Virus record (IMG/VR): IMGVR_UViG_3300042923_000569
Coordinates: 1-64,000 of that record
Strand: one strand, 5' to 3'
DNA: 64,000 nucleotides
DNA from: a virus
The position numbers and the translations under genes are program-made. The notes under the pieces are model-generated. The model was given only the letters and a program-made list of their open reading frames with translations, searched no databases and was not told the origin of the DNA. Positions 1 to 64,000 of this stretch are shown piece after piece; the stretch's first letter is position 1, and each line of letters begins with the position of its first letter.

Positions 1-258
1 ACCATGAAGGTAGATACCATCGCTAATCATACGACCTGCACATGATACGGTTTTAATTTCCCCGCTGATTTTGCTTAGGGTGAAGATTGCTTTACGTTGT
101 GAGTTTTTAAAACCGTCAATACCAGGTAGTGCACGGTCAAAAGTACTTAGAGCATATTCTAAGGATGATTGGTTAATATAATCTGAACTTCCAAAGTCCA
201 GTAGGGTTAATTCGTTTGGAACTACTTCTTGTGTTTGAGTTTTCTTTGATTTACGCAT
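1..258 (-). CDS. 52: DNA topoisomerase II, medium subunit (T4 gp52-like), N-terminal part
   Basis: The DNA-cleaving GyrA/ParC-type subunit of the phage type II topoisomerase, which acts with the large subunit encoded just upstream. Only the first 86 codons are visible; the gene runs off the left edge. Residues around 45-85 read GIDGFKNSQRKAIFTL and later SCAGRMISDGIYLHG, matching the conserved start of the GyrA/ParC/gp52 breakage-reunion domain, where the expected motif is a GxxDGxKxxQRR type sequence. The ATG at 258 has a GAGG ribosome site a few bases upstream. It follows the large subunit by 50 bp with a hairpin between them, so the two are probably co-transcribed. The catalytic tyrosine lies outside the window. 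Confidence 0.85.
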   Translation of the reverse strand, partial: MRKSKKTQTQEVVPNELTLLDFGSSDYINQSSLEYALSTFDRALPGIDGFKNSQRKAIFTLSKISGEIKTVSCAGRMISDGIYLHG

Positions 259-281
259 TCCATTTGCCTCTTTGTTATTTC

Positions 282-300
282 GGGGTACATCCTGTACCCC
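282..300 (-). terminator. Hairpin between topoisomerase subunit genes
   Basis: Seven-base inverted repeat GGGGTAC with a 5-base loop. It has no T-run on the minus strand, so it is a weak or partial terminator or an mRNA processing structure. Confidence 0.4.
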
Positions 301-308
301 ACTAATTC

Positions 309-2288
309 TTAGTCTTCTTTAGTCCATTCTTTTCGGTCGTCAGCACGTTCCTTATTAAAGATTAGGTCTAAGGTTGCCCCTAGATTGCCATCATCAGTAA
401 TAGCTACTGCAACGCCATTTTCTAATGCATCACGGAAGTTTGAAACTTCTAGAGTCCCAAGACCTTTTGCACGAGTGGCTTTCCAACCTTTCCATTCTTC
501 AGGATCGTATTCATGGACGTTATGACCATAGAAGTATCTTGATTCTTTACCCTTTTCTAGAATAATAAATGGAGTTTTGAAAATATAAATGAATGGATTT
601 TCTGTATCTGCGAATAGTTCAGGCCAGAACTTATAGAAAAAGTTCACGACTAGAGCACCGATGTTTTTACCATCTTCATCTTCGTCAGCACAGATATATA
701 ATTTACCGAAGTTTAAACTATCACGATCTAGTTTTTCTCCAGGAATAATATTTAATGAAGCCATAATGTCATGAATAGCCGATGGTTTGTCAGCCGTACC
801 CATTAGATCCTTAGTCTTCTCTTTACCGTTTACGTTTTGGATTTTACCACGTAATGGAAGAATACCATGAATAGCTGAGTTACGAGCTGCTGTCATTGAA
901 CTGACCGCTGAATCACCTTCTGCAATTAGAAGAATACATTCTTTACGTGGAACAGTATCGTTAACATCACGAAGCTTAGCTACTTTACCTTTAAGTAAAC
1001 GCTTAGCCATTTTGCGATCTTCATCTGCATCTTTCTTATTAGTACGCTCAGCACAACGAGCATAAATCTCTTCGACCCAATCATTATTCTTCTTGATTAG
1101 TTCTACAAAGAATTCTTCGCTTAGTGCATTCTGTACTGGTTTAATGACATTTTCATTAGTTAACTTGGTTTTGATTTGTGAGTTGAATGTTGGAGTATTC
1201 ATCTTAGTGACGTTATAAATCAACAAACCTTCTTCAATATCAGAACGGTTAGGAGTCATCTTCTTTTGCTTAGACTTACGTTCAAGTGCTTTAATTACAC
1301 CCAATGCAAACTTCTGCTGGAACGTATCTAAGTGTGTACCACCTTCTAAGGATGGTGCGTTGTTTACAAGACCTTGCATATGCAAGTTCTTACTCAAACC
1401 CTGTACTGCATTTGGTACGATTAAGAAAGTACTGTTCAAGCCTGTTTCTGCATCGTCAACTTGCAATGACATAGTTTTAGCAGAACCGAACAAACCTTTA
1501 CGTGCAACGGTAATTTTATCACCATTCAAATAAATTTTATAAGTAGGGTTAGCTGCTGCAATTTCTTTAAGAATACTGAAGACTAGTTCAGTAGGTAGAG
1601 TGTGTACTTTAAACACTTCTTTACTGATTTTAAATCTTACTGTAGTTCCTGTTTTTTCAGTAGCAATCTTACGAATAGATGGCTCGTCAATTCCAAGTTC
1701 AGGAAACATTTGCGTTCCTTCTGTGAATTTCTGAGTAAACTTATATGTACCATTATATTCGGAGTTTGCTTTATCTGTTTTGTAAGGCTTACCAGTACGA
1801 TGAATTTCAAGTTCAGCTTTCTCACTAACAATCATTACTACTGAACCACCAAGACCGTTCATACCAACTACGTTGTTACGTTCATCATCATTAAAGTTAC
1901 GTCCAGTTTTCATTTCTGTTAGAACCATAGTACAGACATGTTTCTGTGCTTCTGGTACATAGTCAATGGGAATACCACGACCATTATCGCTAATTTCGAA
2001 CTCAAGTTCATCTTCATTATATGTTACATGCAAAGTTGGGCTTTTAGCACCGGACTTTACGAATTCATCTAATGAGTTGTCCACGATTTCGCGGAATGAA
2101 GTTAGTAAAGCTGGAACCCAACGTAAATTTTGTACGTTAAAACCATCTTCACCGAAAAGTAGTACTGGTTGTTCATGTTCTGATTTAGAACCCAAATACA
2201 TTTCAGTACGGATACGAGCATGTTGATATTCAGTTAGTTGTTGAACACCGTGTTCTGCTAGGACTGAACTTTTCTTTTCCTTTGCCAT
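309..2288 (-). CDS. 39: DNA topoisomerase II, large subunit (T4 gp39/gp60-like)
   Basis: ATPase and TOPRIM subunit of the phage type II topoisomerase, used in replication. At 659 residues it is a single GyrB/ParE-like chain. The GHKL ATPase site is visible as EIVDNSLDEF, SDNGRGIPI and GMNGLGG near residues 65-145. The TOPRIM metal site is visible as AEGDSA and ADEDEDGKN near residues 460 and 545. In T4 the same functions are divided between gp39 and gp60; here they are fused. A strong sigma70-like promoter lies at 2323-2351, just upstream, which suggests early expression. Confidence 0.93.
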   Translation of the reverse strand: MAKEKKSSVLAEHGVQQLTEYQHARIRTEMYLGSKSEHEQPVLLFGEDGFNVQNLRWVPALLTSFREIVDNSLDEFVKSGAKSPTLHVTYNEDELEFEISDNGRGIPIDYVPEAQKHVCTMVLTEMKTGRNFNDDERNNVVGMNGLGGSVVMIVSEKAELEIHRTGKPYKTDKANSEYNGTYKFTQKFTEGTQMFPELGIDEPSIRKIATEKTGTTVRFKISKEVFKVHTLPTELVFSILKEIAAANPTYKIYLNGDKITVARKGLFGSAKTMSLQVDDAETGLNSTFLIVPNAVQGLSKNLHMQGLVNNAPSLEGGTHLDTFQQKFALGVIKALERKSKQKKMTPNRSDIEEGLLIYNVTKMNTPTFNSQIKTKLTNENVIKPVQNALSEEFFVELIKKNNDWVEEIYARCAERTNKKDADEDRKMAKRLLKGKVAKLRDVNDTVPRKECILLIAEGDSAVSSMTAARNSAIHGILPLRGKIQNVNGKEKTKDLMGTADKPSAIHDIMASLNIIPGEKLDRDSLNFGKLYICADEDEDGKNIGALVVNFFYKFWPELFADTENPFIYIFKTPFIILEKGKESRYFYGHNVHEYDPEEWKGWKATRAKGLGTLEVSNFRDALENGVAVAITDDGNLGATLDLIFNKERADDRKEWTKED

Positions 2289-2322
2289 TTTTTAATTCCC
2301 TTTATTGTTTCTTAGCCAGTAT

Positions 2323-62745: not shown

Positions 62746-63603
62746 ATGAATAAGATGAACCCTTTATCAAAGTACACTAAAGTAGAAGTACTTTATACAA
62801 AGTTGATAAGTAACAATGTTGTGAAATACAACGAAGGTGTTTTAGTAAATGACACTGTGGAATGTGGCGTTTGTGCACGTTCTGCACGAGATGAATTAAT
62901 GTTCAATAACCCTGACGCACTAATGAATGGTGAAGCAGTATCTAGTGTTATTGAGAACTGCGTACCAAATATTGCAGACGCAAGAAAACTTTTTGTTCCA
63001 GATGTTGAACTACTATTGATTGCAATTAAATTAGCAACAAAAGAAACCGAATATCATATTGAAGTAGATTGTCCTGAATGTGGTCATCATGGTGCATTTG
63101 AACGTAACCTACAAGTACTATTAGATAGTGCTGAACTATTAGAAAAGCAACCAGAATTACTATTAGAAGATGTAGGTGGTCTACTTCTTAAATTCAGACC
63201 TCAAACATGGCAGGAATATAATACCTTTGGACAGAATATGTTCCAGCAACAAAAGAAAGCACAGATCCTAGAAAAACGTGATGATTTAACTGATGAACAG
63301 AAAATGGAAGTCTTTAGTCAAATCTTTGAAGAAATGACAAGATTGAGTTTTGATATGATTGTTTGTAATATTGATAGTGTTGAAACTGTAGACGGGAATG
63401 TGATTACTGAGAAGGAATTTATTGCAGAATGGTTGGGTGTACAGCCTTCATTTATTCTCAAACAAATTCGAGAAAAAGCAGATGAAGTCAATAATTGCGG
63501 AGTTTCGCATGAGATGGATGTAGGATGTTCTAAGTGTGATCATGAATGGACAATCGAAAATCTTCAATTTGACCCAAGCAATTTTTTCGTACAAAGCTTC
63601 TAA
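62746..63603 (+). CDS. 26: gp26-like baseplate hub / tail assembly protein
   Basis: 285 residues. NPLSKYTKVEVLYTKLISN at the start, then NPDALMNGEAVSSVIENCVP and PDVELLLIAIKLATKE, match the T4 gp26-type baseplate hub group. CPECGH (about residue 105) and CSKCDHEW (about residue 265) give CxxC pairs, perhaps a zinc ribbon. It lies next to the probable tape-measure gene. Near its end it has the slippery heptamer T TTT TTC, after which a -1 shift would add 70 residues in place of the last four. GGAG precedes the ATG. Confidence 0.75.
   Translation: MNKMNPLSKYTKVEVLYTKLISNNVVKYNEGVLVNDTVECGVCARSARDELMFNNPDALMNGEAVSSVIENCVPNIADARKLFVPDVELLLIAIKLATKETEYHIEVDCPECGHHGAFERNLQVLLDSAELLEKQPELLLEDVGGLLLKFRPQTWQEYNTFGQNMFQQQKKAQILEKRDDLTDEQKMEVFSQIFEEMTRLSFDMIVCNIDSVETVDGNVITEKEFIAEWLGVQPSFILKQIREKADEVNNCGVSHEMDVGCSKCDHEWTIENLQFDPSNFFVQSF
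63582..63588 (+). promoter_or_regulatory. Candidate -1 ribosomal frameshift site T TTT TTC
   Basis: Classic X XXY YYZ heptamer in the gp26-like frame (AAT TTT TTC GTA), five codons before the stop. A weak 6 bp hairpin (ATTTCT/AGAAAT, 63603-63622) follows. Confidence 0.5.
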
Positions 63604-63800
63604 TTTCTGAACCGGAAGAAATACGGAAAGAAATAGCAGACCTAAGATTGAACTCGGAAGATATTAAAAGTGGATTGATGGAGGTGTCAGTGTACATAGA
63701 GAACACTACATATGAAACGCTACTGAATATGCCTGTAACCGACAGAGATCTTCTTGTGAAGCAATATAATAAAAAGGTCAAAAAAGAAAATAAGAAATAA
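63588..63800 (+). CDS. -1 frame extension of gp26-like protein (or separate small ORF)
   Basis: The -1 frame is open from 63573 to the TAA at 63798-63800 and reads as protein throughout: EPEEIRKEIADLRLNSEDIK, then MEVSVYIENTTYETLLNMP, ending with lysines. Between the gp26-like stop (63603) and the first ATG (63678) there is no ATG, so either a frameshift makes a 351-residue fusion, or a 40-residue protein starts at 63678 (weak GTGGA upstream). The coherent sequence before 63678 favours the frameshift. It ends at a strong terminator. Confidence 0.55.
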   Translation, partial: RTKLLISEPEEIRKEIADLRLNSEDIKSGLMEVSVYIENTTYETLLNMPVTDRDLLVKQYNKKVKKENKK

Positions 63801-63805
63801 TTAAG

Positions 63806-63832
63806 AACCAGCCATTGTGCTGGTTTTTTTGT
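63806..63832 (+). terminator. Terminator of the gp26-like operon
   Basis: AACCAGC/GCTGGTT stem with a 6-base loop, then TTTTTTT on the plus strand. Confidence 0.9.
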
Positions 63833-64000
63833 ATCTAAATTATCTTAACTCTTTAGATTTGCCATTCTTCGAATGTCAAAGAATTTTCGTTGTTCTGTAC
63901 ATCACTAACGTTCTGTACTGAATCAACTCAATTCAGATTTATATCTAATGCATCACTGTTAACGTTACACACTTTATACTGACGAGATTTGTTTCATTTA
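63833..64000 (-). other. Right-end region with possible decayed coding on the minus strand
   Basis: Minus-strand reading gives protein-like text ending SLTFEEWQI before a TAA near 63855, but the same frame is cut by a TGA about 25 codons upstream and again near the window edge. No start codon or promoter of the common class is convincing. It may be the degraded 3' end of a gene or plain non-coding sequence. Confidence 0.25.

What the first reader, a model, noticed from the sequence alone, without database searches (positions are those of the whole stretch)
1..64000. Palindrome AGTACT strongly over-represented across the window
Reading the sequence by eye I marked roughly 110 copies of AGTACT. 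A simple base-composition estimate, assuming about 37-38% GC, gives around 20. Copies occur in all three reading frames: Ser-Thr (9118-9123), Gln-Tyr-Ser (9141-9146) and Val-Leu (2161-2166). An amino-acid or single-codon bias therefore cannot explain it. They spread over the whole window, about one per 600 bp, with local clusters such as six in 32927-33774 (uvsW). The enrichment suggests a DNA-level role: a binding site for a phage chromatin or recombination protein, a modification site, or a packaging or self-recognition mark.
Basis: partly seen in the sequence, partly recalled or inferred. Interest (0 to 1): 0.82.

Follow-up and report, generated by a model that had tools for sequence, protein, structure and literature searches.

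The report
Iterated AGTACT palindrome in jumbo phages
A six-letter DNA palindrome, AGTACT, is repeated about 1000 times across this giant phage's genome, nine times more than chance; it is kept in place by selection in its relatives and in unrelated small phages, and even biases the phage's protein sequences, which points to an unidentified factor that reads it.

Summary
AGTACT occurs 117 times in the window (21 expected from composition; coding copies 113 against 26±5 in synonymous shuffles) and 991 times in the whole 357,873-base record (110 expected). It is the most enriched hexamer, in all three reading frames and between genes. Ser-Thr is the most over-represented dipeptide of the proteome (1.51x), while Thr-Ser is at 1.00. 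Every RaK2/GAP32/121Q-type jumbo phage examined has the same enrichment; T4, KVP40, phiKZ, G, PA5oct and Atu_ph07 do not, and XacN1 has none. Synonymous codons inside AGTACT are retained far more often than the same codons elsewhere (GTA 91% against 54%, p=3e-13). Unrelated 26-38 kb phages carry it even more densely (about one per 240 bp) with the same flanking preference, yet share no recognised DNA-binding protein or methyltransferase with this genome. In the jumbo phages' early-gene segment, paired copies 20-22 bp apart bracket sigma70 promoters. Best explanation: AGTACT (extended TTCAGTACTGAA) is the binding site of a dimeric sequence-specific protein, used genome-wide and as an early-promoter operator. 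The uvsW 'cluster' is chance. No paper in the held library was found to describe this.

The parts
1..64000 (.). 117 copies of AGTACT, near-Poisson spacing, both coding and intergenic; part of 991 in the 357,873-base record
9118..9123 (.). AGTACT, frame 0 (Ser-Thr) of ORF 8683-9228 (-)
9141..9146 (.). AGTACT, frame 1 (xAG TAC Txx) of the same ORF
2161..2166 (.). AGTACT, frame 2 (xxA GTA CTx, Val-Leu) of ORF 309-2288 (-)
32927..33774 (.). six AGTACT copies inside the UvsW-type helicase gene (32716-34200, -); not a significant cluster

Best explanation
AGTACT (preferred longer form TTCAGTACTGAA, G disfavoured just outside the hexamer) is the recognition site of a dimeric, sequence-specific DNA-binding protein. 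Natural selection keeps about one copy per 240-370 bp across the whole genome. In the jumbo phages the same site also serves as an operator: pairs 20-22 bp apart overlap the -35 and abut the -10 of early sigma70 promoters, so the protein would switch those promoters, most likely off, as it accumulates, while the ~1000 other copies let it coat or mark phage DNA. Shown here: the enrichment, the selection on individual sites, the flank preference, the promoter geometry, and the recurrence in unrelated phages. Inferred: that a protein reads it, that it is dimeric, that it represses, and that it coats or marks the genome.
For: Top-ranked hexamer against synonymous shuffles: 823 coding copies against 191±14, z 46, frames 408/131/284 against 115/20/56; intergenic 165 against 16. 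Exceeds a codon-pair model in frames 1 and 2 (131 against 75; 284 against 162). Ser-Thr is the top dipeptide at 1.51x, Thr-Ser 1.00, Val-Leu 1.19 against Leu-Val 0.96. Retention between this phage and GAP32 of the same codon inside against outside AGTACT: GTA 91/54%, TAC 86/48%, ACT 88/65%, AGT 92/73%. Present in all 13 near-complete relatives counted plus RaK2, not in T4, KVP40, phiKZ, phage G. Symmetric flanks: C at -1 up to 49%, T at -3 up to 50%, G at -1 6-9%. Early-promoter pairs AGTACTTG(A/C)-N8-13-AGTACT-N0-2-TATAAT, 4-12 strict cases per genome, and excess of 20-22 bp spacing over the mean of jittered sites in every genome. Unrelated small phages: 104-149 copies per 27-38 kb contig, same flanks.
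Against: No reader protein was found: Pfam scans of about 70 proteins, nearly all from the conserved set of 182, gave no convincing sequence-specific DNA-binding domain. HMMs of all ORFs of this phage find only endolysin in all ten small phages. The promoter-bracketing arrangement is absent from the small phages, so the operator role may be secondary. A phage recorded from Enterobacter, BHUENT6, has only 5 copies in 48 kb, so a host reader would not impose the site on every phage. The relative G001 has lost sites at an ordinary rate (82 lost against 31 in this lineage) yet persists.
Confidence: 0.55

Rival explanations
1. AGTACT is a modification site: a methyltransferase (phage or host) modifies it, and methyl-directed processes create and maintain it, as proposed for HIP1 in cyanobacteria.
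For: A PF05869 (Dam-type N6-adenine) methyltransferase is present in all 14 AGTACT-rich jumbo genomes tested and absent in XacN1, which has no AGTACT. HIP genomes always carry a matching methyltransferase (PMC4390886).
Against: That methyltransferase is only 43-47% identical between this genus and 121Q or RaK2, while a Geobacillus phage homologue is 55% identical and its phage has 1 AGTACT; a Lactococcus phage with a 50% homologue has none. The small AGTACT-rich phages have no detected homologue of it. PF00145 and PF01555 enzymes are missing from several AGTACT-rich genomes. Losses hit all six positions with many substitution types, unlike a single-mismatch repair bias.
Confidence: 0.15
2. AGTACT is a self-mark that tells phage DNA from host DNA for a phage nuclease, replication or packaging machine.
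For: Density is 1 per 240-370 bp in these phages against about 1 per 4-10 kb in five bacterial genomes counted. Sites are spread genome-wide with Poisson-like spacing.
Against: No shared nuclease or packaging protein with all the small phages; what is shared is lysis genes and a few exchanged genes. A mark does not by itself explain the paired copies at early promoters.
Confidence: 0.15
3. AGTACT is a stoperator-like site: a regulator bound at scattered copies blocks transcription elongation as well as early promoters.
For: Combination of promoter operators and scattered copies, as in mycobacteriophage immunity repressors (PMC9283540, abstract).
Against: Mycobacteriophage sites are asymmetric (title of PMC9283540) and, from memory, only tens in number and oriented with transcription; here about 1000, palindromic, mostly inside genes. 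No repressor gene identified.
Confidence: 0.1
4. Composition, amino-acid or codon-pair bias explains the excess.
For: Part of the excess in frame 0 coincides with a Ser-Thr excess.
Against: Synonymous shuffle z 46, intergenic tenfold, codon-pair model exceeded, Thr-Ser not enriched.
Confidence: 0.02

Closest known systems
Highly iterated palindrome HIP1 (GCGATCGC) of cyanobacteria
   Same: Short palindrome, genome-wide, around 1000-2000 per Mb (PMC4390886).
   Different: Here in phages of several unrelated types, denser (about 2800-4400 per Mb), AT-richer, no demonstrated matching methyltransferase, and paired copies at promoters.
SlmA binding site GTGAGTACTCAC of enteric bacteria
   Same: Same central AGTACT; scattered, mostly in coding regions (PMC3116907).
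   Different: Phage copies avoid G at -1 (6-9%), the base of the SlmA consensus; preferred form is TTCAGTACTGAA; ~1000 copies in 0.36 Mb against 50 in E. coli.
Mycobacteriophage stoperators
   Same: Operators at early promoters plus scattered copies in a phage genome.
   Different: Asymmetric; cognate repressor known; here palindromic and ~1000 copies, reader unknown.
Restriction-site avoidance in phages
   Same: The same genomes lack GCGC and about twenty GC-rich palindromes.
   Different: AGTACT is the opposite: strongly enriched here, and wholly absent in XacN1.

Membership tests
HIP-type iterated palindrome | Palindromic oligomer far above expectation across the whole genome | tested here: met
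   991 against 110, all 20-kb bins enriched
HIP-type iterated palindrome | A methyltransferase recognising part of the word in every genome that has it | tested here: inconclusive
   PF05869 enzyme in 14/14 jumbo genomes, specificity unknown; no homologue detected in the small phages
HIP-type iterated palindrome | One-base deviations biased to the first and last bases | tested here: not met
   losses at all six positions
SlmA site | GTG/CAC flanks around AGTACT | tested here: not met
   G at -1 only 6-9%
Stoperator system | Same site at early promoters and scattered in the genome | tested here: met
Stoperator system | Asymmetric site | tested here: not met
   AGTACT and TTCAGTACTGAA are perfect palindromes
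Stoperator system | Cognate repressor gene in the phage | tested here: inconclusive
   none recognised among the proteins scanned; not all were scanned
Modification site | Base modification at AGTACT | not testable with these tools
   needs PacBio or nanopore data on virion DNA

The most novel reading that the evidence does not exclude
AGTACT is a shared genome-wide DNA address of several unrelated phage lineages that exchange lysis and tail genes, read by one common factor (probably of the host), and selection for it is strong enough to bend the phages' proteins (Ser-Thr excess).
Probability: 0.35. Interest if true: 0.92.

Novelty: new variant of a known kind. Interest (0 to 1): 0.8.

Why it matters
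Genome-wide iterated motifs (Chi, DUS, HIP1) have repeatedly led to core DNA machinery. None is known to me in phages at this density, and the literature searches run here found no mention of this one. If a protein reads AGTACT, it is a new genome-organising or early-gene-switching factor in the 121Q/RaK2/GAP32 phages, and it can be fished out directly with an oligonucleotide. The relaxed lineage G001 and the AGTACT-free XacN1 offer natural contrasts.

Tried and rejected
Codon usage, codon pairs, dipeptide bias: rejected. SlmA site: rejected by flanks. Dam-type methyltransferase as sole cause: a 55% homologue occurs in a phage without AGTACT excess. Lack of depletion of one-mismatch neighbours was considered and set aside, because a reversible mutational bias would not deplete them. 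Genes lost in the relaxed relative G001: only two adjacent conserved genes and a few narrow-range ones, no obvious reader. Search for an AGTACT-iterated bacterial chromosome: hits were scattered single clusters in unrelated taxa, and the five bacterial genomes then counted have ordinary or low counts. An AP2-like HNH-type protein (cluster c19, domain named by eye) shared by both small-phage groups and GAP32 was considered as reader; it is missing from this genome and from G006 and G019. Host of the small phages was not identified; E. coli and phage collections gave no match for most. Structure prediction was not used because no candidate stood out.

Full report
What the window is. The window is the first 64 kb of a 357,873-base IMG/VR virus record. 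Its DNA polymerase is 87% identical to those of Cronobacter phage GAP32 and Pectobacterium phage CBB, and gene order matches those Mimasvirus genomes. It is a GAP32/RaK2/121Q-type jumbo phage.

The observation. AGTACT occurs 117 times in the window and 991 times in the record. Composition predicts 21 and 121, a Markov-1 model 19 and 110, a Markov-3 model 58 and 437. The Markov-3 value is inflated by the sites themselves; with them masked it is 28.5 and 171. Shuffling synonymous codons gives 191±14 in coding DNA against 823 seen (z 46), with excess in all three frames (408/131/284 against 115/20/56). Intergenic DNA has 165 against 16. In the window alone the coding count is 113 against 25.6±4.7. 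AGTACT is the most enriched of all hexamers. Codon-pair preference does not explain the two frames that span three codons: 131 against 75 and 284 against 162, while control contexts are below expectation. The site reaches into the proteins: Ser-Thr is the most over-represented of 308 dipeptides (747 against 495), Thr-Ser is exactly at expectation. Spacing is close to random (CV 0.92) and counts per 2 kb are only slightly overdispersed. The six copies in uvsW are not a significant cluster.

Selection on individual sites. Orthologous genes of this phage and GAP32 were aligned codon by codon. Where neighbours are identical, the valine codon GTA is kept in 91% of cases inside AGTACT and 54% elsewhere (p=3e-13); TAC 86% against 48%, ACT 88% against 65%, AGT 92% against 73%. 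In a near-identical contig (99.3% over 19.5 kb) none of 37 sites has changed, with 1.4 changes expected, which is consistent but weak. A closer relative, G001, retains fewer sites; with GAP32 as outgroup it has lost 82 shared sites against 31 in this lineage, so constraint seems relaxed there. Losses affect all six positions.

Distribution among phages. Whole-record counts are 757-1313 in thirteen near-complete relatives of 348-378 kb, and 937 in RaK2, against 134-200 for the reversed control word. T4 has 29, KVP40 60, phiKZ 75, phiR1-37 128, phage G 102, PA5oct 15, Atu_ph07 25, and XacN1, a jumbo phage that shares part of the conserved gene set, none. The flanks are symmetric: C at -1 and T at -3 favoured, G at -1 avoided; in RaK2 and 121Q the consensus is TTCAGTACTGAA.

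A second, unrelated set. Scanning viral contigs for clusters of the word found, besides jumbo phages, a family of 26-38 kb phages with a lambda-like head and portal, and a second type (contigs G008, G011) with split T7-like RNA polymerase genes and, at one end, a bacterial-type EAL gene. Each of the ten contigs read in full carries 104-149 AGTACT, 11-16 times expectation, in all frames, with the same flank preference. Both sets also lack GCGC, or nearly so, and most GC-rich palindromes. Models of all 573 ORFs of this phage find only an endolysin in all ten small phages, and spanin-like lysis genes in two; the reverse search adds exchanged tail and homing-type genes. No recognised DNA-binding protein or methyltransferase is common to all. 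Some of these phages have serine-type integrases and so are probably temperate. Their hosts are not identified; one shares a UmuD-like segment at 99.5% with Enterobacter phages, one of which, BHUENT6, has only 5 AGTACT.

Promoter pairs. Intergenic AGTACT is densest, 9-11 per kb of intergenic DNA against mostly 0-5 elsewhere, in one stretch of about 20 kb in each jumbo genome (about 40 kb in 121Q): 0-20 kb of GAP32 and BF, about 222-240 kb of this record. By position this corresponds to the terminal repeat and early-gene segment annotated in fENko-Kae01 and described for CBB; that correspondence is inferred. There the sites stand in pairs 20-22 bp apart around sigma70-like promoters of the form AGTACTTGACA-N-AGTACTgTATAAT. 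A strict pattern finds 4-12 per genome, 8 in this record at 230,003-235,024. Pairs 20-22 bp apart exceed the mean of jittered controls about two- to fivefold in all six genomes, although in this record (15 against a mean of 6.5) the maximum of 300 jitters was 16. The small phages lack this arrangement; several of their intergenic copies sit in inverted repeats followed by T-runs.

Mechanism. A palindrome with symmetric flank preference, kept by selection wherever it lies and placed two helical turns apart across promoters, is what a dimeric DNA-binding protein would produce. That is inference; no reader was found. Conserved methyltransferases were examined: PF05869 is in all 14 jumbo genomes and not in XacN1, but its close homologues elsewhere do not go with AGTACT and the small phages lack it. 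PF00145 and PF01555 are patchy. Pfam scans of about 70 mostly conserved proteins revealed no clear regulator.

Comparison with the known. HIP1 is the closest kind of thing (PMC4390886); SlmA sites share the core but not the flanks (PMC3116907); stoperators share the mixture of operators and scattered copies (PMC9283540). Full-text searches for AGTACT with phage terms found nothing; only open-licence papers are held, so a report elsewhere is possible.

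Noticed in passing
whole record and relatives; window 1-64000: GCGC and about twenty GC-rich six-base palindromes (e.g. CTGCAG, CAGCTG, GCATGC) are wholly absent from 358 kb although tens of copies of several are expected; nearly the same in the unrelated small phages. Probable restriction-site avoidance.
   Followed up: partly
whole record, coding DNA: TAAATA/TATTTA is the most depleted hexamer in coding DNA (96 against 423 expected), as if spurious T4-type late promoters (TATAAATA) were avoided.
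   Followed up: no
record positions 230003-235024 (L009), L061 (GAP32), L094-L095 (RaK2): Early sigma70 promoters bracketed by two AGTACT copies 20-22 bp apart.
   Followed up: yes
L450-L469 (contigs G006-G012, G015, G017, G019): Small phages with AGTACT every ~240 bp; serine-type integrases in several; AGTACT pairs also form terminator-like hairpins.
   Followed up: partly
L137-L156 (XacN1): XacN1 has no AGTACT, no GATC and no CACGTG, ATCGAT or GTGCAC in 385 kb, while GATATC, GGTACC and TTCGAA are enriched two- to threefold.
   Followed up: no
window 7887-8396 (-): Conserved phage protein with both domains of translation initiation factor IF-3.
   Followed up: no
L006:14426-15199 (-), L004:9417-9911 (-), L006:13524-14417 (-): Conserved SIR2-family, Macro-domain and NUDIX proteins, which may act in NAD-related host conflict.
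   Followed up: no
L043-L060 (G001): Relative in which AGTACT sites decay at an ordinary rate while its promoter pairs persist.
   Followed up: partly
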